In this document: in pieces, positions 7,424 to 37,433 of the stretch
How the letters are laid out: each line of letters begins with the position of its first letter
How positions within the stretch are numbered: position 1 is the first letter of the stretch
Assembly (NCBI GenBank): GCA_022821385.1
Contig: JAJEDR010000051.1
Coordinates: 1-47,390 of the forward strand
From: Rhodothermales bacterium
GTDB taxonomy: Bacteria > Bacteroidota > Rhodothermia > Rhodothermales > Bin80
DNA length: 47,390 bases
Direction of reading: 5' to 3'
Translations under genes and position numbers: made by a program
Notes under the pieces: model-generated
Told to the model about the DNA's origin: nothing
What the model saw: only the letters and a program-made list of their open reading frames with translations
Database searches by the model: none

Positions 7424-8986
7424 CTATTCCCACTCAATAGTTGCTGGCGGTTTTGAACTGATATCATACACTATGCGGTTGATACCCCGAACTTCGTTGA
7501 CGATCCGGTTGGCTACATATCCAAGAAAATCCAGCGGCAACTTAGCCCAGTCTGCCGTCATCCCATCTTTACTGGTAACTGCTCTCAGCCCGCACACCTG
7601 TTCATAGGTGCGCCCATCTCCCATTACGCCCACACTCTGAACCGGTAATAGAACGGCAAAAGCCTGCCACACATCATCATAATAACCCTGCGCATGCAAT
7701 TCTTCAATAAAAATGCGGTCCGCCTCCCTCAAAAGGTGCAAGCTCCTTGCGCATACCGGTCCAAGGATACGCACAGCAAGCCCCGGACCAGGGAACGGAT
7801 GCCGACCAATGATTTCCTCCGGTAAATCCAATAGTCTGCCAATCTCTCGAACTTCGTCCTTAAATAACTCCCGGAAGGGCTCCAATATTTCAAATGGATG
7901 ATCTTCCGGCAAGCCGCCAACATTGTGGTGTGTTTTTATAGTTACACTGGGGCCCTTGAAAGAAATGCTTTCAATTACATCAGGGTATAGCGTACCCTGC
8001 GCCAAAAATTTCGGTCTGTCGCCCAGCGCAGATGAAATGGCCGACGTTGCCTCTTCAAACACATGTACAAACGTATTGCCGATCACAACACGTTTGCGCT
8101 CTGGATCCGTGATCCCCTCCAGGCGAGTCAGAAACCGCTCGCTCGCATCAATTGCTTCCAGGCGAATCTGGAAATGATTGCGGAAAGTGTTTTGCACACT
8201 TTCCCATTCACCGTGGCGTAAAAGCCCGTTATTCACAAAAATACAGGTTAGCTGGTCACCAATCGCCTCATGAATCAACCGGGCAGCAACCGATGAATCT
8301 ACTCCTCCAGACAAGCCCAAGATAACGTGATCCATCCCGACCAGTTTGCGTATCTCCGCAATCTTCTGCGTCATGAAGGAGGCAGGGGACCAGTTGCAGC
8401 GGCAACCACATATTTCCCCTACAAAGTTCTCAAAGATGCGCTGCCCGCCTTCGGTGTGCACGACCTCTGGATGAAACTGTACGCCGTAGTGTGGCAACGT
8501 GGTATGGCGTAGTCCGGCAATAACTGCACTTGTTGTATCTGCTATGACCTCGTAGCCAGGCGGGGCATGCGTGGGAAGATCTCCGTGACTCATCCAGACT
8601 TGCGTACCGTTTTCGATGCCGGCAAGCAGCTTATCATCCCGAAGGATATTGAGCGATGCACGCCCAAATTCTCGATGTTCCGCAGCCTCCACCACACCAC
8701 CTAGTGAATGGACCAAGGCCTGCAATCCGTAGCAGATCCCCAGCAAGGGCATAGGTGAACCATCCCCCCGCTGAAGTTGAAGAAGCGTTGGATTCAGTTG
8801 TGGTGCCCCCGGCTCATAGACCGAGTTTGGGCCTCCGGAAAGTACAATCCCCCGTGCAGTTGCAAATTCCTCAATCGATGCAGTACAGGGAAGGATTTCA
8901 GAGAATACACCTGCCTCGCGTATTCGGCGAGCGATCAATTGGGTATACTGGGCCCCGAAATCCAGAATGACTATCCGCTCATCCAT
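7424..8986 (-). CDS. guaA: GMP synthase (glutamine-hydrolysing)
   Basis: Converts XMP to GMP using glutamine and ATP. The 520-residue protein has both domains. In the class I amidotransferase the nucleophile is C85 in LGICYGLQ, with H172 and E174 in VQFHPEVVHTEGG. The N-type ATP pyrophosphatase begins with the P-loop LSGGVDSSVAA (225-235). The C-terminal dimerisation domain includes HPFPGPGLA-x-R and ends with the family-typical KPPATIEWE. Full length and intact. It is followed without a gap by the TPR/PBP gene and preceded by gcvH. Confidence 0.97.
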   Translation of the reverse strand: MDERIVILDFGAQYTQLIARRIREAGVFSEILPCTASIEEFATARGIVLSGGPNSVYEPGAPQLNPTLLQLQRGDGSPMPLLGICYGLQALVHSLGGVVEAAEHREFGRASLNILRDDKLLAGIENGTQVWMSHGDLPTHAPPGYEVIADTTSAVIAGLRHTTLPHYGVQFHPEVVHTEGGQRIFENFVGEICGCRCNWSPASFMTQKIAEIRKLVGMDHVILGLSGGVDSSVAARLIHEAIGDQLTCIFVNNGLLRHGEWESVQNTFRNHFQIRLEAIDASERFLTRLEGITDPERKRVVIGNTFVHVFEEATSAISSALGDRPKFLAQGTLYPDVIESISFKGPSVTIKTHHNVGGLPEDHPFEILEPFRELFKDEVREIGRLLDLPEEIIGRHPFPGPGLAVRILGPVCARSLHLLREADRIFIEELHAQGYYDDVWQAFAVLLPVQSVGVMGDGRTYEQVCGLRAVTSKDGMTADWAKLPLDFLGYVANRIVNEVRGINRIVYDISSKPPATIEWE

Positions 8987-26076: not shown

Positions 26077-26940
26077 CTAATTCCACCCCTTATCCCATCG
26101 GGAGCGGCTCTCTTCGTCCCTAAAAATCTGGCCGACCTCGGTGACAGACTCTGCGAGGGCACCAGTGCCGCGGATGTCGTTCTTGACCTCTTGTATGAAG
26201 AGCCGATTTAGTTCCTGTACCAAGGTCCTGAATCCAGACACCTCTAACTTCTTGATTTCTTCCCACTTGCCTTTACTCAGTGGGGCGGAGGCAAATCCGA
26301 CCATGGTCGGATCGTCCGCCCAGTAGACCGGATCACCCGACTCTATGCCGAACCTCACCAATATTGCTAGCCTGGCATGTACACTTGTAATGATCTGATA
26401 TAGACCATAAGTGGACTCGCTTACGAAAGGGCGCGTGTCGTGCAAATGAGAAGGAAACGTTCCCAATCCAATAGACACGTCACTAGCCGAGTATCCATTC
26501 TCTACCTGACTTGAGAATACCTCCTCTATTTTACCTTCCGGTTCGAATTCAGTCAAAGCCTCTCTTACTTGCCTGCCTAATCTATCCGGCTTTCTAATCG
26601 CATCGAGTAATTCTTTTTTCGTAAGTATTGACACCACAGCCGCTAGAGAGGCGAAGGTCCGCTCTTTATGCAGAATATCCTTCCAAAGCCGTTCAACAGA
26701 TTCAATGGTCTTATCCCGATACCTGGCGTGGATCCGGCTTGCAATGTCCACCGAGTGGACCACCGAAGTCGTGTGCGCTTGAAGTCTCGCTTCAAGCTGC
26801 GTGAGTTCACGGTTTTGTGTATGCTCAATGCGTTTGACAAGCACGTTCATTGCGCCTGGAAGCAATAATTTGATAACCCCCAACAAAGCACCAGCAGCCA
26901 CCGCCCCGGCACCAATTATGTATCCTATGGTTTCAAGCAT
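26077..26940 (-). CDS. One-TM helical protein of unknown function, partner of the protease gene
   Basis: A 287-residue protein that I do not recognise. It has one N-terminal membrane segment (about 5-28, glycine- and alanine-rich, ending LLLPG). A charged coiled-coil-like stretch follows (~33-60, with ELTQLEARLQAH), then a mainly helical soluble body and an acidic C-terminus. The bulk is probably cytoplasmic. Its ATG begins immediately after the stop of the trypsin-like gene upstream (no gap), so the two are almost certainly one operon. Neighbouring IS debris suggests that the pair is accessory. Confidence 0.65.
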   Translation of the reverse strand: MLETIGYIIGAGAVAAGALLGVIKLLLPGAMNVLVKRIEHTQNRELTQLEARLQAHTTSVVHSVDIASRIHARYRDKTIESVERLWKDILHKERTFASLAAVVSILTKKELLDAIRKPDRLGRQVREALTEFEPEGKIEEVFSSQVENGYSASDVSIGLGTFPSHLHDTRPFVSESTYGLYQIITSVHARLAILVRFGIESGDPVYWADDPTMVGFASAPLSKGKWEEIKKLEVSGFRTLVQELNRLFIQEVKNDIRGTGALAESVTEVGQIFRDEESRSRWDKGWN

Positions 26941-27672
26941 TCAGCTTTCTGTTCCCATGCATGAATGGAGAGTCTGGGCCGCGGCTGCTTCGAGGTAACC
27001 GATTGGGCTGGAGTGGATGGCCTCCAGCGCATGTTTGATGCCGTAAGCACGAACAATACCGGTATTCGCATGCACCACATTACCAGTCTCCTTGCCGTTA
27101 TTGTCTAGGACAGGAACCTCGTCAAACCTATAACCGGATACGATGGCTGCAACCCGCCAATCTCGCTGGCTGGAGGCAACCGGTGTAAATACAACCGGGC
27201 CACCAGAAAATCCGGGATTGTTGTGGCCATCCAAGTAAAATGTATTCTCGGCATCTTCCTTGAGGTCAATGGCAGAAACCGTCGCCTGCTTCACAAACGG
27301 CATGGGAAACTGACGGTTGAGGTCCCTGCTGTCCATGCGCATTCTATACGGAAAGCCAAGGAAAAACACTTCCTGCCCGTAACCTAGACCTTTCGAAGTG
27401 GCGTCGAGTGTTAGACTAGCTTCAACAATACGATTGTTTGGAGCAAGCACGCAAACGTCACTGCTGTGCGATCCGTACCCGACCAGATCAACCTCCAAGA
27501 GCTTCCATTGGTTGTCGTGATAAATTTCGATCGTGTCATCCTCAAATGACGGTAGGCAGTGTTTGGCTGTGCACAAATATTGCTTGTCATTTACATCAAT
27601 GGCAAAGCACGTTCCGGTACTAGTACCGTGCTTGAACTGAAACACTCGCCTGAATACTTCGGTCGGAATCAT
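26941..27672 (-). CDS. Trypsin-like serine protease without signal peptide
   Basis: A 243-residue chymotrypsin-fold protease. The triad is visible: H38 in CTAKHCL, D72 in SSDVCVL and S156 in NPGFSGGPV, which also supplies the oxyanion loop. There is no signal peptide or PDZ domain, so it is probably cytoplasmic, unlike DegP-type proteases. Small cytoplasmic trypsin-like proteins occur in bacterial conflict systems as effectors, but that role is inferred here only from its position beside IS debris and a defence-like island. It is followed directly by the one-TM protein gene. Confidence 0.8.
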   Translation of the reverse strand: MIPTEVFRRVFQFKHGTSTGTCFAIDVNDKQYLCTAKHCLPSFEDDTIEIYHDNQWKLLEVDLVGYGSHSSDVCVLAPNNRIVEASLTLDATSKGLGYGQEVFFLGFPYRMRMDSRDLNRQFPMPFVKQATVSAIDLKEDAENTFYLDGHNNPGFSGGPVVFTPVASSQRDWRVAAIVSGYRFDEVPVLDNNGKETGNVVHANTGIVRAYGIKHALEAIHSSPIGYLEAAAAQTLHSCMGTES

Positions 27673-27779: not shown

Positions 27780-28613
27780 GGTCGCGGCCATGCCGGGCTG
27801 CAGGTAGACGTGGATCCGCAGGCCACGCTTAGTGACACGAGGACGCGGATCTTTGGGATGCCAGGGCCTGGTAGCCCTAATCAAGCCACGGCAGGTAGCA
27901 GCAATTCGACAACAACGGAATGTTTACTCACTCGATGCTGAGCGAAGAGGAATTAAGGACGTACTTTTGTCCGGTACAATCGCGCGGGGCACACCGCCCA
28001 AAAATTCCAACGTCCGGCGAACAGACCCGCAGAAATCGCACGCCCTTTGCGTCTCGGTGGCCTCTGCACACAGATAGTTAGAAGCCCCCAGCACTGCGAC
28101 AAACAATTCTACGGTTCGTACGTCACCGGTATCCAGATCAACCACGCAGGACTTCTTTCCTGAATAATCCACGAATAACCGGTCTCCGGCCTTATAGTTA
28201 TGACGCATTACTGGATCCAAATTGGCGCAGCACCAACTACGGTACAGATCACAAAAACGACTGTACTAGTACCCCTCTGGATGCGCCGCGAGATACTCTT
28301 TTCAAAGCTGCGCCAGGGTCAGCCTACGGTGTTTGGTGAGTTCCAGTTGGACCTCAGCCCAGTTCGGCACCGGCCGCTGTCACGATGCAGATCGGGCTGT
28401 GGAGGGACAGAGGATCGCCTCCAACTCAGCATCCGTCATCCCATCGGGTAACGGCCAAGTCAGATTCGCCACCGTGGCGCGCTCAAGAATCCGGGATACC
28501 GATCCGCGGACCATTCCCACATCGCAGCCAATCGCGCGATGGGACAACTTGAACGCAAATCGCAGTTCCAGAATACGCTTGATCTTCTTCATCGATATAC
28601 GCTGTGCAGGCAC
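27780..28613 (-). pseudogene. istA: Decayed IS21-family istA transposase (left copy)
   Basis: The reading starts near 28613 with MPAQRISMKKIKRILELRF and SHRAIG (the helix-turn-helix of IstA), then WPLPDG. It continues through a stop-containing stretch (28220-28380, reading WAEV-x-LELTKH, YLAAHPEGY and RFCDLYR with in-frame TGA and TAG). It then returns to an open segment, YKAGDRLFVDYSGKK, TVELFVAVLGASNY and FLGGVPRAIVPD, which is the start of the IS21 DDE core. Beyond 27924 only scraps remain (ARPWHPKD-like). There is no istB. Several stops, frameshifts and the missing 3' half make it inactive. Confidence 0.85.
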
Positions 28614-28621
28614 AGGTCATT

Positions 28622-28642: not shown

Positions 28643-28740
28643 TATGCATAACCCGACCTAGATTAGATGAGAAACAAACCGCCTCCGATTTGATGAACGC
28701 GAATCAACGCCCCATATTACCGGCTTGTAAAGTGCTTCAC

Positions 28741-28867
28741 TTCGCTCGGAATGGTGCCCTACTTCGCTCGGAATGGTGCCCCGCTTCGCTCGGATTGATG
28801 CCCCGCTTCGCTCGGATTAGTGCCCCGCATCGCTCGGATTGGTGCCCCACATCGTCGGATTATGCAG
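28741..28867 (-). repeat. 22-bp tandem terminal repeats of the IS21-family left end
   Basis: Five consecutive 22-base units begin at 28741, 28763, 28785, 28807 and 28829, followed by a partial unit ending about 28867. The unit is close to TTCGCTCGGATTGGTGCCCC plus two bases. Neighbouring units differ by one to four bases. Multiple short repeats at the tip are typical of IS21-family ends, where transposase binds. The orientation matches the istA remnant to the left, so the tip of the element is at about 28873. Confidence 0.8.
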
Positions 28868-28939
28868 ATTAGAATAAGGATACCGCCGGTTTAATCCTGA
28901 ACTGTAACCATGATTCTGCCCGTAGATTTCTTATGTCGC

Positions 28940-30754
28940 TTAATCACGGTTATTGGTTTTGTGGACGACATTTCGATGAAAAATCTGAGGAATTCCCATC
29001 TCCTCACATTGCTCCAAAACAACGAAATCAGTAGTAACATCCGTGTTATTGACAAACTGAACAATCAGTTTGGTAGCCAAGCTTGACCACAAACCTAAGT
29101 CATCGTTTCGAGCCTCAAATACGGGATGGAAACATCCAACCCCCTCCCACTGGACATCATCATCACTGAATTGATCACGTTCCTCCTTGAGATAAGGAGC
29201 TAAGCTGTCATTAAAACTGTCGACAGGAAATCTTATTCCGTGTCCATAGAAAGCATAAAACCTGCGGGCCTTCGTACCAATTGATATGGAAATGAAATGC
29301 TTTGGCTGTTTCCAATCTAATGAGTTGAGATGAGCGGTTACATCATCAGATCCCGTAGCATCAATTATTAGATCTGCTTCCAAGATCTCCTCAGATACCT
29401 CGGACTCTGGAGAGAAGCTCCTTGCAACTGCTCGCACGCATGCATGTGGGTTCACAGAGTTCAGATGAGCCTCAAGCTTTTCGGCCTTATTCCCACCTAA
29501 ATCGTTCATGGTCAGTGAGTGCCGGACAAGATTACCTGCCACCAAAGGCTCCATATCAACTAGAGTCATTTCGGTGATCCCACCACGAACAAGATGCTCA
29601 GCCAACGGTGCTCCGAGAGCTCCGACTCCTATGATGACGGTCCTCATTTCGCGGAGTGTTTTGGGTAACTGTCCTCGAGTAGCCAGTGCGTTTGGGTGCC
29701 AATTCTCAGTTGTTCGCCAAGGCAGTGATTTGTTGTTACCTAAATTTCTCATACGATAGGCGTTCCATAGGCTATTTCTGTCGTTCCGGTAACCCTTATA
29801 ACGGCTCTCAAAAGCGGGCAATAAAAGTGCCTGCCAGTGAATAAGACGGGGCTCCTCACCAACTACTTCGGGAATTAAAGCCCCCAGGAGTAAAATGATT
29901 GGTTGCCCGATGGGAATTAGACGAATAGCTTTTTTGATCAAGTCATTTAGCTCTGTATCTGGACAGGATTGACGTAACTCACCCCAAGTCCTGGGTTGTT
30001 GCCACGGATCAACGACCGGCAGTTTATCCAATTGAATCCACAGACCTTTTACGGGTGTAGATGGATAGGCAGTCAAGTGTGTTCCCCAATTCAATTTTCG
30101 GTTGATATTGTTTTCAGAATCACAATAAGCTTGGACGATTCCAGAATTCTCGGAAATCATGCTCAGATCAACAACACCGTATTTTGGTGTGATTCCAGAA
30201 TTTGGTTGATGGTCCAAACTCTCCGACACAATGACAGTCTTGACGCCCTTCTTTCCCTGCTCAGGTTTATGAAATGGGAGTTCAAAACGTTCTCCTTCAC
30301 GCATGAGATCGTTATTTGCTGCACAATTCAGCCATTTGACCGCACGTTCAAAGGTCCATTTGAGCCGAGTACGCCAATCTCGTGGTTCTGTGGATGCACC
30401 CACCCTATCGAGTACTCGTAGGTGACCGGCAAGGCATAGGAATGAGCTTTGCCAAGGCTTGGATTCGGGCACCTGGAAGGGATATTGATGAGGGAAAAGC
30501 CCCTCAATGCTGTTTTTCTTGGAAGGAAAGAAGTCGATAGCTCCATCTGGATAAAGACTGGAGACCCGTACGTACCATTCCGTCGTACAGGGCACCGAAC
30601 TATTTTCCGGCACATTCACAGAAATCCTACACTGAATCGTCCATAGCTTATCCTCTGCACACCACTCCCATGTACCCAAAAGGCTTACCCCATCAACTTC
30701 CAGCACTCTCTGCGTAGCGGCGCAAAGAGTGTCGAAGGATTCAGGGGAATTCAT
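28940..30754 (-). CDS. E2-E1 fusion: ubiquitin-conjugating-like plus ThiF-type activating domain (Cap2-like)
   Basis: About 604 residues from the ATG at 30754 (residue numbers here count one extra codon upstream). The N-terminal ~1-150 read as a bacterial E2 fold: a beta meander, FPHQYPF (H90), then SSFLCLAG with the likely catalytic C108, and a closing helix L-K-W-x-x-ERAVKWL. Residues ~180-365 are a linker or dimerisation region that I cannot name. Residues ~370-605 are a ThiF/E1 adenylation domain: VIIGVGALGAPLAEHL (nucleotide loop 377-382), LVDME (D401), NLVRHSL (R412), then GCFHPVFEA (C542, candidate E1 cysteine). The order is that of Cap2 in type II CBASS, but no CD-NTase or JAB protease is nearby. 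It follows the tandem YegP gene by 24 bases. In Cap2 systems such enzymes attach a partner protein's C-terminus to targets. Confidence 0.83.
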   Translation of the reverse strand: MNSPESFDTLCAATQRVLEVDGVSLLGTWEWCAEDKLWTIQCRISVNVPENSSVPCTTEWYVRVSSLYPDGAIDFFPSKKNSIEGLFPHQYPFQVPESKPWQSSFLCLAGHLRVLDRVGASTEPRDWRTRLKWTFERAVKWLNCAANNDLMREGERFELPFHKPEQGKKGVKTVIVSESLDHQPNSGITPKYGVVDLSMISENSGIVQAYCDSENNINRKLNWGTHLTAYPSTPVKGLWIQLDKLPVVDPWQQPRTWGELRQSCPDTELNDLIKKAIRLIPIGQPIILLLGALIPEVVGEEPRLIHWQALLLPAFESRYKGYRNDRNSLWNAYRMRNLGNNKSLPWRTTENWHPNALATRGQLPKTLREMRTVIIGVGALGAPLAEHLVRGGITEMTLVDMEPLVAGNLVRHSLTMNDLGGNKAEKLEAHLNSVNPHACVRAVARSFSPESEVSEEILEADLIIDATGSDDVTAHLNSLDWKQPKHFISISIGTKARRFYAFYGHGIRFPVDSFNDSLAPYLKEERDQFSDDDVQWEGVGCFHPVFEARNDDLGLWSSLATKLIVQFVNNTDVTTDFVVLEQCEEMGIPQIFHRNVVHKTNNRD

Positions 30755-30778
30755 CACTCAGAGCGTCATTACTCGAAA

Positions 30779-31246
30779 TTATGCAAACCTGCTCTCGCGC
30801 GGTTCAATAGATGTATTACCATCTCTCCCAGAACTTTCACGGTTCTTTGTTTCATCTTTCACTTTTGCAGTGGGCGCAAATTTTTTGACCAGTTCGAGAC
30901 CATTAATACAAGCGAATTTCTTTTTATATCCCTCGCTAGAGATGGCAATGATTTTGTTGTTTCCACTTTGCAGTCTCCACCGGTATTCCTTGGCTTCATC
31001 CTTCTCCACTTCAAATTCTGGTTTACTGCCCTGACCATGGTGCCCATCTGCACCGGGTTTTGTAAGATCATTGACCGGAGCGTTCGGTGCAAGGCGTTTA
31101 ACAAGGTCAATACTTGCCTCTGCCGTAGCTCTGCGTTTAAAGGACTCGCCAGGAACAGCGAGCTCTTCATGGTTTGCAGCATGAAAGGTCCAGCGATACT
31201 GGCCTGTTACGTCCTGAGAAATTCTGAAATATGGCATCATTTTCAT
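30779..31246 (-). CDS. Tandem YegP (DUF1508) domain protein
   Basis: A 155-residue protein made of two YegP/DUF1508 repeats, at ~4-58 and ~76-130. Each has F-x-I/V-x-x-D...YRW, a turn with N, I-I-A-like strand, E-G/S-Y/F-K, then a helix with L-VK-x-x-AP-x-A. The linker (~60-75) is Gly/His-rich. The C-terminus is a disordered, charged tail ending RESRFA. YegP proteins are small alpha/beta proteins of unknown function. The gene directly precedes the E2-E1 gene, so its product is a natural candidate for that enzyme's substrate or target, but no diglycine tail is present. Confidence 0.82.
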   Translation of the reverse strand: MKMMPYFRISQDVTGQYRWTFHAANHEELAVPGESFKRRATAEASIDLVKRLAPNAPVNDLTKPGADGHHGQGSKPEFEVEKDEAKEYRWRLQSGNNKIIAISSEGYKKKFACINGLELVKKFAPTAKVKDETKNRESSGRDGNTSIEPRESRFA

Positions 31247-31472
31247 TTACCTTAAGGTTGAAGTGTCTCCCCGTCGTTTGAGGAAACACAAAGATGATTG
31301 ATCAAGATCTTGCAGAAACAGTCTCCAAGATCCACCTATATGTGCACGAATTAACATAATTGTGTTCTTAATTGTAACTCGCAAATCCTAGGACCCGTAC
31401 TCTCGTATTGATCGCGGTTGCTGTATTCAACCGACATCGTCATCATTTAGCGGCGAACCCAACTATGCTGAT

Positions 31473-31501
31473 TTCGTATTGTTTCCTATTACGAATTCGT
31501 G
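31473..31501. promoter_or_regulatory. Candidate operator for the XRE regulator (three TTCGTA half-sites)
   Basis: TTCGTA at 31473-31478, its complement TACGAA at 31490-31495, and TTCGTG at 31496-31501 form two overlapping inverted repeats. One has 11 bases between arms. The other is the contiguous palindrome ACGAATTCGT. The site lies 18 bases before the regulator ATG, in the 273-base divergent region that must hold promoters for both the YegP/E2-E1 pair and the XRE-ImmA pair. Autoregulation is inferred. Confidence 0.5.
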
Positions 31502-31519
31502 AATAATATGTTTCAGTGA

Positions 31520-31867
31520 ATGAAAAAAAAACGCCCAACCGAAATTTTTCCCAGTCGGCTCCGTAGCACACGGGAGAAACGCGCACTGAACCAGTCTGAG
31601 TTAGCCAGGCGAGCAGGTCTACAGGCCTCCGCCGTTTCTCAATTCGAAACAGGAACTAGAAAGCCATCCTTTGATAATCTGCGCCGGCTTGCTGATGCAC
31701 TAGATGTAACCACAGATTACTTGATTGGCCGGGTGGACGATAATCAGGCCAGTGCAGGTCAGGATCAGTTATATCGTAATATTGATAACCTAACGGCAGA
31801 GGATCGCGAGTTCGCGGAAAGCTTCATTAAACTCCTTGCAAAAAAGTCGCAAAATCGCAGACAATGA
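31520..31867 (+). CDS. XRE-family helix-turn-helix regulator
   Basis: A 115-residue DNA-binding protein. Residues ~11-68 form a Cro/CI-type domain: LRSTREKRALNQSELARRAG, SAVSQFETGTRKPS, then LRRLADAL-x-V-x-x-DYLIGR. The C-terminal ~45 residues are charged and helical. The start is the ATG at 31520; an ATG at 31508 reads into a stop after two codons. Its stop overlaps the ATG of the ImmA/IrrE-like peptidase (ATGA), the usual pairing in which the peptidase cleaves the repressor to switch on a mobile or defence element. Confidence 0.9.
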   Translation: MKKKRPTEIFPSRLRSTREKRALNQSELARRAGLQASAVSQFETGTRKPSFDNLRRLADALDVTTDYLIGRVDDNQASAGQDQLYRNIDNLTAEDREFAESFIKLLAKKSQNRRQ

Positions 31868-32742
31868 ATCGTAATTCTATTCAATTCAAAGCGGCATCAG
31901 TCGCAGAAAAAGTTGTCTCAGATCAAGGCATCAAACAACTACCCGTGGACCCTATTGCAATAGCCCACAACCTAGATATAGAGGTCACACCTCAACCAAT
32001 TCATAGCCGAGGAGTTTCTGGGATGCTTATGCGTGTTAACAACTCGTTTGGAATAGCCTATGCTACGCACATCAATAGCATTGGCTTCAAGAATTTTAGT
32101 ATCGCACACGAACTGGGACACTACTTTCTCCCTGGGCATGTTGATGCGGTATTTGGCGCGGACAATCTTCACATATCAAAGGCAGGATTTTTCTCAGAAA
32201 AACAGTACGAAATGGAGGCTGATCTATTTGCGGCACGATTGCTGATGCCACAGAGATTATTTAAAGAAGCCGCATTATCGGTAGATGAGGGGTTGCTTGG
32301 GATAGAGGAACTCTCCCGAACTTGTAAGACCTCTCTCACAGCAACAGCAATACGTTATACGGAGTGTGTTGAGTATCCGATGGCTGTCATTGTAAGTGTT
32401 CGCGATAAGGTCAGTTATTGCTTTATGTCTGAGCCACTGAAGGAAGTTAGCGACCTAACTTGGATCCGAAAAGGACAAAATCTGCCAATCAATACGATAA
32501 CTTTTGATTTCAATCAGGACAGTCAGAGAGTCCAAGACGCCGAACGAGACGCGGACGTATCCGATTTGCAAGACTGGTTTGGAGGCGACATCTCCGTTCA
32601 GATTGAGGAAGCGGTTCAGGGATTGGGTCGGTATGAGAGGACGTTAACCATACTGACTGCCCCGGACCTTTTCGATAAAATAGAAGAGATTAAAGAGAAT
32701 GAGGCTCTGCATAAATCATGGGAGCCAAAATTTAGACTTTGA
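31864..32742 (+). CDS. ImmA/IrrE-family metallopeptidase
   Basis: A 292-residue zinc peptidase. The catalytic motif is AHELGHYFLPGH (H82, E83, H86), with a downstream MEADLFAARLLMP stretch that supplies the third ligand and fits the COG2856/IrrE family. The C-terminal ~120 residues are a less conserved, probably sensory part. The start overlaps the XRE gene stop by four bases. By family precedent it cleaves the partner XRE repressor after a damage or phage signal. That link is inferred. Confidence 0.9.
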   Translation: MNRNSIQFKAASVAEKVVSDQGIKQLPVDPIAIAHNLDIEVTPQPIHSRGVSGMLMRVNNSFGIAYATHINSIGFKNFSIAHELGHYFLPGHVDAVFGADNLHISKAGFFSEKQYEMEADLFAARLLMPQRLFKEAALSVDEGLLGIEELSRTCKTSLTATAIRYTECVEYPMAVIVSVRDKVSYCFMSEPLKEVSDLTWIRKGQNLPINTITFDFNQDSQRVQDAERDADVSDLQDWFGGDISVQIEEAVQGLGRYERTLTILTAPDLFDKIEEIKENEALHKSWEPKFRL

Positions 32743-32821
32743 TTTTCTTGATGCTAGATAAAGCTATAACCATCCTTGGACTCAGACTCCAATATGTTAG
32801 TTCGCGCAAACTATACCCCAT

Positions 32822-34984
32822 ATGACCAAACCTACGCCAAATCCGCATATCGCTGACGAAAACTTGATCACCGACATTGCCACGAAACACGGAAATACCT
32901 CGGAAACACCTTTTTCCAGTCTAACCAGCAAGACGGCCGTCGGTCAGGTGCTGCTATTAGACTATAATTCTGCCACCTTAGCAGTTCACGATTACCACAA
33001 GGAGCAGGTAGGTGGTTTGGCACGCGGCATGTTCCTGATATCAGGCCCCTCTTCCTCGAGCGAAGAAGCCAGTTTTGTGCTTATGCGAGTAGTCGGAGCG
33101 AAACGTCTAGCTAATCAGACTACTACCGATGAGGTACGACTTACTGCTGCGCAAGAGAGCATTGGTCAGGATATCTGGTCCGATAGACTTACCAAATGGG
33201 TTGCTAACGAAATTGCGCTGGGCGGTGTAGAGGCCCGAATACTTGGGACACTAACTTGGCGCGGTGGGACGCTCCTGTTTGCGGAGGATACAGCAAATTA
33301 TTATTCTGCGCGTGGAGCATATGTATGGAAACCCACGGGTTCTTTGCTTGAGAGTGTCGTAAATCTGTCGCACCGGGGAAATAGCCTTGACCTTTCGGGG
33401 TTGAAGAACCACAATAAATCTGATATTCGGATTCCTGTCGCGAAAACCCGCTTCGCAGCCGCTGACAGCCTCGAAACAAGCGATGTGCATGTTCCCGTCA
33501 AAATTGATCCCACTGACCTACTCAAGCGACGGACGGTTTTCTTTGGAATGTCCAGAAGTGGAAAGTCGAACGCGATGAAAATCACGGCCCAAGCTGTCTA
33601 CATGCTCCGAAAGAAATATCCTGATTTCAGGGTTGGCCAACTCATTTTCGATCCCAATGGAGAGTACGCCCAAGATAATCCGCAGGACGGACGCGGCCTC
33701 CATCGCATCCACGAGTTAGTGAATGAAGACCGGGAGGGAGAAATTGAGACCTACGGGAGGTATCGTCCTCCAACCGATCTTCAAAGAAAGATTACGAAGA
33801 TCAACTTTTTCGGAAACCCGGTTCCTCCCAGTAAACGGATTGACAGGAATCACGTCGAAAAATCACTGGATCAACTCATCGTGGGACGCGATCTTATAAA
33901 GGAACGGATGTCAACGGAGACGGCTCGTTTTACCTGCAACTTCCGAGACGCGGACCTTTCTATTCCGACGAATCTCGTAGATCGTAGTGTTGCAATCCGG
34001 TTTCATCGGGCTATAGTTGTTCATCAAGTCGCGCTTGCAGCAGCGGGATTTGAAGCCCCTCCATATCCCGATATCACCGGACTCTTCAGCAAGGAATTGC
34101 GCAATGCTCTCCGTTCCAGCAAGAACGATATGTCCGACCACGTTGATAAGTACCGAAGGGCAGAAAAAATACTAAGCAACTCCCGGCCGTCGTGGAATCA
34201 ACTAAATTTTGCATTTGAGGCCCTTCACCGTTTTATTCGAGATCGTAAGAGTGCTTACCAATCGTTTGAAGAGGAATACTCAAGCAAATCTGGTTCTGGC
34301 GATGACTGGGCCGATCCGCGTCTGAAGTCCATTCTTTCCATCTTTGATACGCCCAATGGTGTTCGAACATTCCAAGATCTACGCAATCAGCATTCGATGG
34401 AGACATCTTCCGACTACGCGGATGACATTGTTGATGATCTGAAAAAGGGTAAGCTGGTGATTTTCGATCAATCAATTGGCGACCCCAAACTGAATCGACA
34501 GGCTGCCGAACGCATCATGTGGAGAGTCTTTCGAGAACAGCAGAAGAAATTCACATCTGGTCAAGATCTAGCCCCATATAAACAACATGTACTGGTGTAC
34601 CTTGAGGAGGCTCACAATCTTCTGCCGCGCACTGGAGCCAAGGATATTCTGTCTACGGTGTGGGCACGTGCAGTTAAGGAAGGTGGGAAAATGAACCTCG
34701 GAGTTGTCTTAGCAACTCAGGCACCGAGTTCGGTCCTTCCAGAGATCTTGAGTGAGACCAATAATTGGTTCATTGCACACCTAAACTCAGACAATGAGGC
34801 AAAGGTGGTGGAGCGCTATTGGGATTTCGTAGATTTCATTCCCCAAATTCGTAGAGTATCGGAGCCGGGCTTTATCAGACTTCGAACCCTCTCCTCGGGG
34901 TACACAGTACCAGTCCAGTTGGATCGGTTTAAGCTTCCGGATCCTCCATCCGAATCGGACGCTAACATTGAGTTCTCCAATTGA
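32822..34984 (+). CDS. HerA-like FtsK-superfamily ATPase
   Basis: A 720-residue hexameric translocase-type ATPase. Residues ~36-175 form a HAS-barrel-like beta domain (VGQVLLLDYNS...). The P-loop is FFGMSRSGKSN (240-250), FDPNGEYA (277-284) is the HerA-specific acidic loop, and Walker B is LVYLEEAHNLLPR (591-603, E595/E596). ATQAPSSV (631-638) and the NNWFIAHLNSDNEA region (647-660) match the sensor and arginine-finger parts. A long helical insertion spans ~335-500. HerA proteins pump DNA and work with NurA nucleases. Its stop overlaps the NurA-like gene start. Confidence 0.9.
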   Translation: MTKPTPNPHIADENLITDIATKHGNTSETPFSSLTSKTAVGQVLLLDYNSATLAVHDYHKEQVGGLARGMFLISGPSSSSEEASFVLMRVVGAKRLANQTTTDEVRLTAAQESIGQDIWSDRLTKWVANEIALGGVEARILGTLTWRGGTLLFAEDTANYYSARGAYVWKPTGSLLESVVNLSHRGNSLDLSGLKNHNKSDIRIPVAKTRFAAADSLETSDVHVPVKIDPTDLLKRRTVFFGMSRSGKSNAMKITAQAVYMLRKKYPDFRVGQLIFDPNGEYAQDNPQDGRGLHRIHELVNEDREGEIETYGRYRPPTDLQRKITKINFFGNPVPPSKRIDRNHVEKSLDQLIVGRDLIKERMSTETARFTCNFRDADLSIPTNLVDRSVAIRFHRAIVVHQVALAAAGFEAPPYPDITGLFSKELRNALRSSKNDMSDHVDKYRRAEKILSNSRPSWNQLNFAFEALHRFIRDRKSAYQSFEEEYSSKSGSGDDWADPRLKSILSIFDTPNGVRTFQDLRNQHSMETSSDYADDIVDDLKKGKLVIFDQSIGDPKLNRQAAERIMWRVFREQQKKFTSGQDLAPYKQHVLVYLEEAHNLLPRTGAKDILSTVWARAVKEGGKMNLGVVLATQAPSSVLPEILSETNNWFIAHLNSDNEAKVVERYWDFVDFIPQIRRVSEPGFIRLRTLSSGYTVPVQLDRFKLPDPPSESDANIEFSN

Positions 34985-36294
34985 TGCCATACCCGAACGA
35001 GCGGGCTGGTTTTTTCGCTGTGCGAGATCTGGAACGTCGTCAGATTATTGAGGCATTCGGAGGTCAGCTTGAACAGGGAAGCAACCTCCCCCGCGATCCC
35101 TTACCTGCTTTTGAGCCATTTCGACAGACCAACAACCTCAGGTCTACCGTGGTAGCATTGGATGGATCTAGCATTTACCATCGAATCCCAGCGCGTCTCC
35201 CAGCAACTGAAGCGGGGGTAATTTCTATCTCAATCGTACAGATAAATGTTGATCAGCTGGCCAATCTTTCTCAACTCCCCGAAAGCGGTGCAATTGATCC
35301 AGTTCAACTACGTAGCACCGAAGATGGCCGTACACTGCAACGGGCGCTTCCAGGACGAAATGCCCGATCAGTAGACGGGAAAATGTCACGTGATTGGTTT
35401 CGTAGTTCAGTCCAAGAAGTCCTGGAAACTGCACATTTCGGTGGAGAGACTCTTGCGGAGACTCTGCATGCTCTTCTGGGGAACACAAACACTCAACGTA
35501 CAATCAAGTGTCCAAATATTCATTGTAAATCAAAGCCCGCTACTCCTAGTCTGGGTCAAATGCGATCACGGTGTAAAAAGTGTGATTCTGAGATTTTTCT
35601 ATCAGATGCCTTGCGTGCACAAGAGATCTTCAGTGACGAAGAGCCCTGCGGCGACGCTCACGGCCGTATCCGTCATGCCTTGGAGATTCTGTGCCTAATG
35701 AATCTGTTGCGGGGCCTTGCGAAAATCAAAAACGGGCAAGCTGCTTTGGGGAAAATCGCATTCGTACTTGATGGTCCGCTGGCAGCTTTTAGTACGATTG
35801 CTGTACTACAGTCTGGGATTCTTCGGGAACTGAGAAGAATCGAAGAATTGTTATCGCCCAACCACCTCCTGGTCATGTCTGCTGTTAAGACGGGAGCTTT
35901 TGTACAGCACTTCTCAGAGTTAGATGAAGCTCCAGAACCAGACTCCCGAATTCCATTAGGAACGGCATTCCTCCCTGATAATGACTACATCCGGGAAAAG
36001 ATCGTTCCAGGGACTACAGACCAACCTTGGGGCAGAACCACCTACTTTGGGAGACCGCTGGTGGTTAAAACCTATGATGGCCAGAGGTTATTTCTCAATC
36101 TTGCACAGCCGGAGGCCGATCCTCCTTTAACAGATGCTCCCTTCCCAGTCGTACTGAACGAAGCAATTACTATTGCCGAGCACCTTGGTATAGGGCACCA
36201 CGAGTTTCTACCGCTTCGACGAGCCCACGCGAAAGCAGCTATTCCGCTTCAGATGGGTAAAGCCATCATTGAGAGCCTAGCAAGAGCAAAATGA
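34984..36294 (+). CDS. NurA-domain nuclease with an inserted zinc ribbon
   Basis: About 436 residues. The ATG at 34984 overlaps the HerA stop in a TGATG, so that start is preferred over the TTG at 34981. NurA hallmarks are VVALDGSS (D near 60, metal ligand), IAFVLDGPLAAF (D near 263) and a C-terminal H-x-x-FLPLRRAHAKAAI segment. Between the two acidic motifs lies a zinc-ribbon-like insertion (C-x4-C at ~176-181, RSRC-x-x-C at ~197-200). NurA is a single/double-strand 5' nuclease that acts inside the HerA ring in archaeal end resection. In bacteria such pairs occur in defence loci. The stop overlaps the methyltransferase ATG (ATGA). Confidence 0.8.
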   Translation: MPYPNERAGFFAVRDLERRQIIEAFGGQLEQGSNLPRDPLPAFEPFRQTNNLRSTVVALDGSSIYHRIPARLPATEAGVISISIVQINVDQLANLSQLPESGAIDPVQLRSTEDGRTLQRALPGRNARSVDGKMSRDWFRSSVQEVLETAHFGGETLAETLHALLGNTNTQRTIKCPNIHCKSKPATPSLGQMRSRCKKCDSEIFLSDALRAQEIFSDEEPCGDAHGRIRHALEILCLMNLLRGLAKIKNGQAALGKIAFVLDGPLAAFSTIAVLQSGILRELRRIEELLSPNHLLVMSAVKTGAFVQHFSELDEAPEPDSRIPLGTAFLPDNDYIREKIVPGTTDQPWGRTTYFGRPLVVKTYDGQRLFLNLAQPEADPPLTDAPFPVVLNEAITIAEHLGIGHHEFLPLRRAHAKAAIPLQMGKAIIESLARAK

Positions 36295-37433
36295 CTACCT
36301 ACGGAATCTCCCGACTTCCTTGGCCAGCGAGTACAGCACAACATAGATGGTATGGGCTTGGACGCTACTATGCAATGTTTCCAGCTCCATTTGTCACAAC
36401 TGCCCTCACAGAATTCACATGCCCCAAAGATGTAGTGATGGATCCCTTCTCGGGTAGAGGGAATGCACCATTCTTGGCTGCGGCAATGGGGAGACCGTCC
36501 ATCTCCATAGACATTCTTCCCATTGCATGGCTATTCACTACGGCTAAACTCAATCCGTCACACAATGCTGACGATGTACTTCTTCGCCTTCAAGACATAC
36601 GACGGGCTGTGCGTCCTCATGAATGCAGGGCCAGAAACGAATTTGAGAAAATGGCTTGGTCTTCTATCGTTCGTGGCTTTCTTCGTGCAGCGCGCCGAGA
36701 GTTAAACTGGAGGGAGTCCAGTACGGATCAAACTCTGACAGCATTTATTGCTCTTCACATGCAGGACAGCATTCCAAGCGGCCTGTCTAACCGGTTCTCG
36801 CCTACCGTAGCTCACTCTTCATCGTATGCCATACAGTGGTGGACGAAGCAAGGATTACTGGATCCGCCTCAGACGGATCCAGTAGCCTTTCTCGCCAAAA
36901 GAATCCAACGAAGGTACGCTTTCGGAGTCCCGACTCTCGCTCATTCAGTCACTAAACTGGGCGATGCCAGGACAGAATTAAAGGCGATGCCTAGTCAAAG
37001 TGTCAGATTGCTAATTACTTCACCGCCGTATCACGATGTGACTGACTACTGGAACGACCAATGGATTCGTCTATGGCTCCTCGGGGCAGACATGCGTAAG
37101 GATTGGAAGCGTGCGCAGAAGCACTCAAACTTAGCTAGCTATCGTGAGTTGATAAACGGCGTATTCACACAAGCTAAAAGACATGTCCGCAAAGACGGTG
37201 TAGTTATTGTTCGTTGCGGTGATAAGCCAACCACTGCGGATACCTGTAGGGAAGCAATCAAGTCTGTGTGGCCCGAGTGTGATATCTTTGAAAAACGAAC
37301 CGAAATCACCAGACGTGGAAAGGCAAGCGGCTATGGTCATGAGAGCAAGACGATCTATGAAGTAGATATTATCTCCGCTCCTGAAGAGCTTGCCGACAGG
37401 ACCCGCTCTTGGGCATTAAATTCCGAAAACTAG
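36291..37433 (+). CDS. DNA methyltransferase (amino-methylating, SPPY type)
   Basis: A 380-residue methylase. Motif I, the S-adenosylmethionine site, is MDPFSGRGNAPFLAA (50-64). The catalytic motif IV is TSPPYHDVTDYW (243-254), suggesting N4-cytosine or N6-adenine methylation. Motif I precedes IV by ~190 residues, with the probable target-recognition region (~95-230) between them, an alpha-like order. The G-x-G loop is of the DPF-x-G-x-G type seen in beta-class enzymes. It is the last gene of the overlapping HerA-NurA-methylase unit, so it may mark self DNA for that machine. No typical restriction endonuclease is present. Confidence 0.85.
   Translation: MTTYGISRLPWPASTAQHRWYGLGRYYAMFPAPFVTTALTEFTCPKDVVMDPFSGRGNAPFLAAAMGRPSISIDILPIAWLFTTAKLNPSHNADDVLLRLQDIRRAVRPHECRARNEFEKMAWSSIVRGFLRAARRELNWRESSTDQTLTAFIALHMQDSIPSGLSNRFSPTVAHSSSYAIQWWTKQGLLDPPQTDPVAFLAKRIQRRYAFGVPTLAHSVTKLGDARTELKAMPSQSVRLLITSPPYHDVTDYWNDQWIRLWLLGADMRKDWKRAQKHSNLASYRELINGVFTQAKRHVRKDGVVIVRCGDKPTTADTCREAIKSVWPECDIFEKRTEITRRGKASGYGHESKTIYEVDIISAPEELADRTRSWALNSEN

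What the first reader, a model, noticed from the sequence alone, without database searches (positions are those of the whole stretch)
28940..31246. E2-E1 fusion paired with a tandem YegP protein, with no CD-NTase or JAB protease
Seen: a two-gene minus-strand unit (24-base gap) of a two-domain YegP/DUF1508 protein and a protein with an E2-like N-terminus (H90, C108) and a ThiF E1-like C-terminus (GxGxxG 377-382, D401, R412, C542). Known: the E2-E1 order is that of CBASS Cap2, and other bacterial ubiquitin-like operons carry a Ubl and a JAB peptidase. Here neither a CD-NTase nor JAB is present, and the only partner is YegP-YegP. Inference: the YegP protein is the conjugated modifier or the target, giving a conjugation system built on a fold not usually linked to ubiquitin-like chemistry. 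Its C-terminus ends in Phe-Ala after a disordered tail, not Gly-Gly.
Basis: partly seen in the sequence, partly recalled or inferred. Interest (0 to 1): 0.85.

Follow-up and report, generated by a model that had tools for sequence, protein, structure and literature searches.

The report
Cap2 conjugation operon built on YegP
A bacterial ubiquitin-like "tagging" enzyme known from the CBASS antiviral system is paired here, and in at least a dozen other bacteria, with a small protein of unknown function (YegP) that ends in the same short tail the enzyme normally grabs on its usual cyclase partner, so YegP is probably the tag itself.

Summary
Window 28940-30757 (-) encodes a full-length homologue of CBASS Cap2 (E2-E1 fusion; PADLOC E1-E2 2e-164; PDB 7to3 5e-79). 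Window 30779-31246 (-) encodes a tandem YegP protein. No CD-NTase or Cap3/JAB lies in the window, and the genome has no SMODS-family CD-NTase. The pairing is conserved: I found 15 YegP-Cap2 operons in Rhodothermota and Bacteroidota. Thirteen of them continue with an intact Cap3-type JAB gene, and 14 lie next to CapH/CapP-like or WYL (CapW-like) regulator genes; none has a CD-NTase or SAVED effector nearby. All 13 distinct Cap2-linked YegPs carry a 23-41-residue tail ending in FA (mostly G[GP]GRFA), matching the CD-NTase tails beside related Cap2s. No solitary YegP of 42 examined has it. In B. cereus, Cap2 conjugates the cyclase through its final Ala (...KPGGFA; PMC11153139). Most likely Cap2 activates the YegP C-terminal Ala and attaches YegP to target lysines, with Cap3 removing it: a cyclase-free, Ubl-like conjugation system whose modifier is not a beta-grasp fold. 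Conjugation itself, targets and output are inferred. No held paper pairs YegP with Cap2.

The parts
28940..30757 (-). Cap2-type E2-E1 fusion protein, 605 aa (GTG) or 604 aa (ATG at 30754)
   Evidence: PADLOC E1-E2 PDLC00848 2.3e-164 over residues 5-591; PDB 7to3 Cap2 5.1e-79; Foldseek top hits are Cap2 structures
30434..30436 (-). E2 catalytic cysteine C108 codon
   Evidence: aligned with residue 109 (Ala in the 7to3 chain); invariant in 29 Cap2s
29612..29629 (-). E1 nucleotide loop GVGALG (residues 377-382)
   Evidence: ThiF Pfam 2.3e-20 at 366-493; G377, G379, G382, D401, N409, R412, K424 invariant
29132..29134 (-). E1 catalytic cysteine C542 codon
   Evidence: aligned with residue 548 (Ala in the 7to3 chain); conserved in all aligned Cap2s
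30779..31246 (-). Tandem YegP/DUF1508 protein, 155 aa, proposed conjugated modifier
   Evidence: PF07411 1.4e-28, two stretches; fold matches E. coli YegP 2k8e 1.8e-8
31067..31231 (-). YegP unit 1 (residues 6-60)
   Evidence: AF2 model, strands 6-11, 17-22, 28-32, helix 39-55
30854..31018 (-). YegP unit 2 (residues 77-131)
   Evidence: AF2 model, strands 77-82, 88-93, 99-103, helix 110-126
30782..30850 (-). Disordered C-terminal tail (residues 133-155) ending ESRFA; proposed donor tail for Cap2
   Evidence: pLDDT under 50 over residues 136-155 except 149; FA conserved in 13/13 distinct Cap2-linked YegPs
31247..31519 (.). Divergent promoter region between yegP and capH, with inverted repeats
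   Evidence: conserved with the congener G003; operator role inferred
31520..31867 (+). CapH-like HTH repressor, 115 aa
   Evidence: PADLOC capH 1e-24
31864..32742 (+). CapP-like ImmA/IrrE metallopeptidase, 292 aa
   Evidence: PADLOC capP 5.2e-60; HELGH motif in the sequence
32822..37433 (+). HerA-like ATPase, 437-aa protein of unknown family and DNA methyltransferase, codirectional with capHP; part of the same 8.5-kb block shared with G003, functional link to YegP-Cap2 unproven
   Evidence: Pfam/PADLOC; block window 28924-37425 is 80% identical to G003

Best explanation
YegP-Cap2(-Cap3) is a cyclase-free conjugation system derived from, or sharing ancestry with, the type II CBASS protein-modification module. 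The tandem YegP protein takes the place of the CD-NTase as modifier. The E1 domain of Cap2 would adenylate the C-terminal Ala of the flexible YegP tail, pass YegP as a thioester to C542 and then C108, and attach it by an isopeptide bond to lysines of cellular or phage proteins. In most operons a Cap3-type JAB protease would reverse this. Expression is probably repressed by CapH (or a WYL protein) and released when CapP senses ssDNA during phage infection or DNA damage. Shown here: gene linkage, conserved catalytic residues in Cap2 and Cap3, a conserved CD-NTase-like FA tail only on the linked YegPs, no CD-NTase, and adjacent regulators. Inferred: the chemistry on YegP, the targets, the antiviral output.
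For: Linkage: YegP directly upstream of Cap2 at 15 loci, gene gaps mostly 3-24 nt. Deep divergence: window and Pontibacter Cap2s are about 31% identical yet keep the pair. Tail: 13/13 distinct linked YegPs have 23-41 aa after unit 2 and end in FA; 0/20 solitary YegPs, nearly all from Cytophagales, do (Fisher 1.7e-9; CD-NTase-derived PSSM, Mann-Whitney 7e-7). Of 22 more from the window's phylum none ends in FA and one, unrelated, ends in FG. CD-NTase tails beside related Cap2s read e.g. GGGYTPRQGVSQLGGGRFA (Nostoc) against GGGYTPPAVGGSSGPGRFA in YegP. Linked YegPs form one clade, 100/100. Literature: Ala331 of ...KPGGFA is the residue joined to PspA, and A331E abolishes immunity (PMC11153139); C-terminal Gly/Ala is conserved only in cyclases of operons with full Cap2 and Cap3 (PMC10097602). 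C108, C542 and the nucleotide site are invariant in the 29 Cap2s. JAB motifs are intact in 13/13. No CD-NTase or SAVED at the 15 loci; no SMODS CD-NTase in 8 of the 11 YegP-Cap2 genomes tested, and in the other three it lies on a different contig. CapHP-like or WYL regulators adjoin 14 of 15 loci.
Against: No biochemical evidence; no complex model could be made. The window and G003 lack Cap3. No effector or target gene is conserved across the operons, so the output is unknown. The three Rhodothermales YegP tails (ESRFA, GGKFA, REQFA) match the CD-NTase tail profile less well (scores 3.9-8.9 against 18-19.2). The Cap2 tree does not settle whether YegP was recruited once or twice (one clade not rejected, AU p 0.183). 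The solitary-YegP controls come only from Cytophagales and the window's phylum.
Confidence: 0.75

Rival explanations
1. YegP is the substrate (acceptor) or a regulatory subunit of Cap2, and another C-terminal donor, encoded elsewhere, is conjugated.
For: Only sequence evidence exists; Cap2 conjugates to various lysines (PMC10097602) and YegP has many lysines.
Against: The donor-type FA terminus is conserved on YegP in 13/13 and absent from solitary YegPs; an acceptor needs no conserved C-terminal carboxylate. No other donor candidate lies in the operons, and 8 of the 11 YegP-Cap2 genomes tested have no SMODS CD-NTase.
Confidence: 0.1
2. A decayed type II CBASS: CD-NTase, Cap3 and effector were lost, and YegP is an unrelated neighbour.
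For: The sequence after Cap2 in the window reads as an IS21-type transposase remnant; JAB is missing; CapHP resembles CBASS regulators.
Against: The same YegP-Cap2 pair, mostly with intact JAB and never with CD-NTase, occurs in two phyla; window genes are under purifying selection (dN/dS about 0.2); the shared tail would be unexplained.
Confidence: 0.05
3. Cap2 uses the YegP tail as a pseudo-substrate: YegP is a decoy inhibitor or brake that occupies Cap2, for example to silence CBASS of competing elements.
For: A CD-NTase-like tail on a non-enzymatic protein would be expected to bind the E1 site (inference).
Against: Each operon carries its own Cap2 with conserved catalytic residues, and usually an intact JAB; an inhibitor would not need a conserved deconjugase.
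Confidence: 0.07

Closest known systems
Type II CBASS Cap2-Cap3 module (CD-NTase, Cap2, Cap3)
   Same: Homologous E2-E1 fusion with invariant catalytic residues; homologous Cap3/JAB in most relatives; donor tail ending in Ala after Gly/Pro-rich disorder; same gene order (modifier, Cap2, Cap3); CapH/CapP or WYL regulators.
   Different: Modifier is tandem YegP instead of CD-NTase; no cyclic-nucleotide synthase and no SAVED effector; no Cap3 in the window.
6A-MBL operons (Cap2/Cap3 with a metallo-beta-lactamase; NCBIfam NF058523, PMC13373217)
   Same: Precedent for Cap2-type machinery linked to a protein other than a CD-NTase.
   Different: No metallo-beta-lactamase partner was seen in the window; Cap2 scores 120.5 against a cut-off of 320.
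Bub and Bil ubiquitin-like operons
   Same: Bacterial E1/E2 (and JAB) conjugation operons; Bub operons often have CapW or CapHP regulators (PMC13373217).
   Different: They use other E1/E2 families and, by prior knowledge, other modifiers; structural similarity of Cap2 to BubCD is remote.
YegP / UPF0339 / HVO_2922 proteins
   Same: Same fold (2k8e, 2k49, 6q2z).
   Different: Ordinary YegPs lack the tail and the Cap2 linkage.
capKS-yegP loci (57 cases, PMC13373217)
   Same: YegP next to a DNA-damage-responsive immune regulator.
   Different: The paper's main text names no Cap2 or E1-E2 partner; whether these are the same system is unknown.

Membership tests
Cap2 E2-E1 fusion enzymes | Full-length E2 + linker + ThiF-like E1 architecture | tested here: met
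   PADLOC 2.3e-164 over residues 5-591; 7to3 over residues 30-570; Foldseek
Cap2 E2-E1 fusion enzymes | E2 and E1 catalytic cysteines and nucleotide-binding residues | tested here: met
   C108 and C542 aligned with 7to3 positions 109 and 548, invariant in 29
Type II CBASS | CD-NTase in the operon | tested here: not met
   CD-NTase HMM no hit at 15 loci including the window; no SMODS in G000
Type II CBASS | Cyclic-nucleotide-gated effector (SAVED and others) | tested here: inconclusive
   SAVED HMM no hit; other effector types not searched exhaustively
Type II CBASS | Cap3 JAB isopeptidase | tested here: not met
   Absent in the window and G003; present with an intact JAMM motif in 13 of 15 related operons
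Cap2 donor (modifier) | Flexible C-terminal tail ending in Ala or Gly, conserved when Cap2 is present | tested here: met
   FA in 13/13 linked YegPs, in 0/42 solitary ones; tail disordered
Cap2 donor (modifier) | Forms thioester with Cap2 and isopeptide with lysines | not testable with these tools
   needs biochemistry
Classical ubiquitin-like proteins | Beta-grasp fold and GG terminus | tested here: not met
   Fold is YegP; ends FA
6A-MBL | Cap2_3 model above curated cut-off, MBL partner | tested here: not met
   120.5 bits against 320; no MBL in Pfam scans of neighbours
CapH/CapP regulation | HTH repressor plus ImmA/IrrE protease next to the operon | tested here: met
   capH 1e-24, capP 5.2e-60; cleavage and ssDNA response not tested

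The most novel reading that the evidence does not exclude
YegP is a true ubiquitin-like modifier on a non-beta-grasp, non-enzymatic fold: a bacterial protein-conjugation system (YegP, E2-E1, JAB) that shares the CBASS donor tail and works without any nucleotide second messenger, showing that Cap2 recognises a portable C-terminal tag that evolution can graft onto new folds.
Probability: 0.65. Interest if true: 0.85.

Novelty: new variant of a known kind. Interest (0 to 1): 0.78.

Why it matters
If right, Cap2 does not serve cyclases alone: it reads a short FA-type tail and can put different folds onto targets. It would give the long-uncharacterised YegP family a first function and provide a conjugation system in which the effect of the modification can be studied without cyclic-nucleotide signalling. 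What Cap2 conjugation does in CBASS is still debated (activation of the cyclase in PMC10097602, an inactive store on PspA in PMC11153139), and a system with an enzyme-free modifier makes that question directly testable.

Tried and rejected
(1) Viral contigs: two scans with Cap2 alignments gave no relative, and phage records gave only partial ThiF/MoeB-like matches; the system is not obviously phage-borne. (2) Haloarchaeal plasmid Cap2s looked promising because HVO_2922 is a YegP relative, but the locus read in full (L009) is ordinary CBASS with CD-NTase and SAVED. (3) I looked for a remnant of the G003 downstream membrane protein after Cap2 in the window: none. (4) One origin of YegP-type Cap2 was neither shown nor rejected. 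(5) Beta-grasp similarity of YegP: none among significant PDB fold matches. (7) The AF2 model of Cap2 was of moderate quality (pLDDT 65) and was used only for fold matching. (8) No held paper pairs YegP with Cap2 or DUF1508 with E1-E2.

Full report
WHAT IS THERE. The two minus-strand genes exist as described. The 605-aa protein is a full-length homologue of CBASS Cap2: PADLOC E1-E2 models reach 2.3e-164 over residues 5-591, the Enterobacter cloacae Cap2 chain 7to3 5.1e-79. In the profile alignment to 7to3, C108 and C542 fall on residues 109 and 548, which are Ala in that chain and which I take to be its mutated catalytic cysteines. The 155-aa partner carries two DUF1508/YegP units. AF2 gives both units at pLDDT about 92 and a disordered tail, under 50 for residues 136-155 except one. 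Its fold matches E. coli YegP 2k8e and Shewanella 2k49; no beta-grasp protein appears among the significant matches.

Divergently upstream lie a CapH-like repressor (PADLOC 1e-24) and a CapP-like metallopeptidase (5e-60). CapH+CapP is one of the DNA-damage-responsive regulator families reported next to immune operons such as CBASS and Bub (PMC13373217). They are followed codirectionally by a HerA-like ATPase, a 437-aa protein and a DNA methyltransferase. The block window 28924-37425 is shared with a congener (G003) at 80% DNA identity and ends just after Cap2 on one side and within the 3' end of the methyltransferase on the other, so these genes travel together in this genus. Whether HerA/MTase belongs functionally to YegP-Cap2 is not shown. 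Downstream of Cap2 the window has IS21-type istA fragments (my reading of the ORFs; no tool named them) and G003 an unrelated 231-aa membrane protein; neither has JAB there.

THE PAIRING IS CONSERVED. Searches of relatives, plasmids, species genomes, the phylum, the order of Pontibacter and its family gave 15 loci in which a tandem YegP gene lies directly upstream of Cap2: the window, G003, G059 (another family of the same order), a Spirosoma plasmid, Pontibacter ummariensis, Bacteroidetes SZAS-84 and nine further loci in genomes of the Pontibacter family (three of them near-identical). Gaps are 3-24 nt in 13 of 15, and the other two longest ORFs overlap slightly. Thirteen of the 15 continue with a Cap3-type JAB gene with an intact E...H-x-H...S..D motif. 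CapHP-like genes adjoin 11 loci (window, G003, Spirosoma, Pontibacter, G1279, SZAS-84, G852, two G1224 loci, G1217, G1234) and a divergent WYL protein adjoins three; for some of the 11 I judged by likeness to the scanned examples, and for the Spirosoma pair by annotation. G059 has neither. HMMs built from 13 CD-NTases and 5 SAVED proteins hit nothing within these loci. SMODS CD-NTase is absent from G000, G003, G059, G542, G852, G1224, G1217 and G1273, and in G541, G1234 and G1279 lies on another contig. The system is rare: 3 of 294 relatives and 3 of 394 phylum genomes had a strong Cap2 match, one of the latter being ordinary CBASS.

THE TAIL IS THE KEY EVIDENCE. All 13 distinct Cap2-linked YegPs have 23-41 residues beyond unit 2 and end in Phe-Ala. 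Twenty solitary YegPs, nearly all from Cytophagales genomes, almost always stop 3-12 residues after unit 2 and never end so (Fisher 1.7e-9). Of 22 more from the window's own phylum, none ends in FA and one ends in an unrelated FG. The CD-NTases beside related Cap2s end the same way: GGGRFA (Nostoc), EGRFA (delta MAG), GPGRFA (G316), GGGRFG (G764), TGRFA (Enterobacter). The likeness extends upstream: GGGYTPRQGVSQLGGGRFA in the Nostoc cyclase against GGGYTPPAVGGSSGPGRFA in the G1217 YegP. A profile made from CD-NTase tails alone separates linked from solitary YegPs without overlap (3.9 to 19.2 against -10.4 to 1.1). Published work shows what this tail does: in B. cereus the cyclase tail KPGGFA is joined through Ala331 to PspA lysines by Cap2, A331E abolishes immunity and Cap3 reverses the bond (PMC11153139). 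Across 1,583 cyclases a terminal Gly or Ala is conserved only where full Cap2 and Cap3 are present (PMC10097602). The same rule, donor tail present only with Cap2, holds here for YegP.

EVOLUTION AND SELECTION. Linked YegPs are one clade against solitary ones, 100/100, so a dedicated subfamily exists. Cap2s of YegP type fall in two places (Bacteroidota clade 100/100; Rhodothermales group 93/75), but one clade is not rejected (AU p 0.183). dN/dS between window and G003 is 0.20 (YegP) and 0.19 (Cap2). C108, C542, G377/G379/G382, D401, N409, R412 and K424 are invariant across 29 Cap2s of both types; the frameshifted Spirosoma Cap2 enters as its first piece, and its second piece keeps the GVGCWH motif.

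MECHANISM AND CONFIDENCE. Best reading (0.75): Cap2 adenylates the YegP C-terminal Ala, carries YegP on C542 and C108, and attaches it to lysines; Cap3, where present, removes it; CapHP or a WYL protein switches the operon on under DNA damage. Steps shown: genes, residues, tail, linkage, regulators. Steps inferred from Cap2 biochemistry: adenylation, thioester, isopeptide bond. Steps unknown: targets, output, how the window and G003 do without Cap3. Rivals (YegP as acceptor or subunit; decayed CBASS; decoy) each leave the tail conservation, the recurrence or the intact JAB genes unexplained.

MEMBERSHIP AND NOVELTY. It has a Cap2-family enzyme but is not CBASS: the CD-NTase is tested and absent. 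It works like type II CBASS conjugation and like ubiquitin in layout (small stable domain, flexible tail, E1/E2, JAB), but the modifier is not a beta-grasp protein. A precedent for Cap2 machinery next to a protein other than a cyclase is the MBL operon class; the window's Cap2 scores far below that model's cut-off. A 2026 paper noted 57 capKS-associated yegP genes of unknown role but its main text mentions neither Cap2 nor E1-E2. In the held library no paper joins YegP with Cap2 or DUF1508 with E1-E2; most subscription papers and all bioRxiv preprints are missing from it, so priority cannot be certified. I rate it a new variant of a known kind.

Noticed in passing
G000:C18 (L003:3-2340): A separate ubiquitin-like operon in the same genome: Multi_ubiq plus Prok-E2_E protein followed by a JAB-ThiF fusion. 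The window genome thus carries two different Ubl-type conjugation systems.
   Followed up: partly
window 32822-37433: HerA-like ATPase, a 437-aa protein without a significant Pfam match (by eye NurA-like) and a DNA methyltransferase, overlapping in one operon behind CapHP and conserved in G003 (80% DNA identity); looks like a nuclease/methylase defence module.
   Followed up: partly
window 26077-27672: Trypsin-like protease gene (Trypsin_2 8.5e-10) abutting a 287-aa gene of unknown family, reminiscent of protease-containing defence pairs.
   Followed up: no
window 27924-28616: Fragments in several minus frames that read as a broken IS21-type istA transposase just downstream of Cap2, followed at about 28660-28890 by short repeated units (SERSGA-like when translated).
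   Followed up: partly
L054-L057, L010: A YhcG/DUF1016 PDDEXK nuclease gene (PADLOC PDC-S02) lies convergent to the YegP-Cap2-JAB operon in four loci of the Pontibacter family, and a PDDEXK nuclease gene lies downstream in Spirosoma; possible effector or co-travelling system.
   Followed up: partly
L063:7124-7537 and L010:4948-6453: Non-conserved extra genes by the operon: an LRAT/PPPDE-like papain-fold protein after JAB in SZAS-84, and an animal-type haem peroxidase gene before yegP in Spirosoma.
   Followed up: no
L010:6992-8786: The Spirosoma plasmid Cap2 is split by a frameshift near 8300 (or a sequencing error), while its YegP tail and JAB are intact.
   Followed up: no
L059 and L060 (G1224 contig 75): Two diverged copies of the whole CapHP-like/YegP-Cap2-JAB unit about 22 kb apart on one contig.
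   Followed up: no
window 31306-31332 and 31470-31498: Inverted repeats GATCTTGCAGA/TCTCCAAGATC and GATTTCGTA/TACGAATTC in the divergent promoter region, partly kept in G003; candidate CapH operators.
   Followed up: partly
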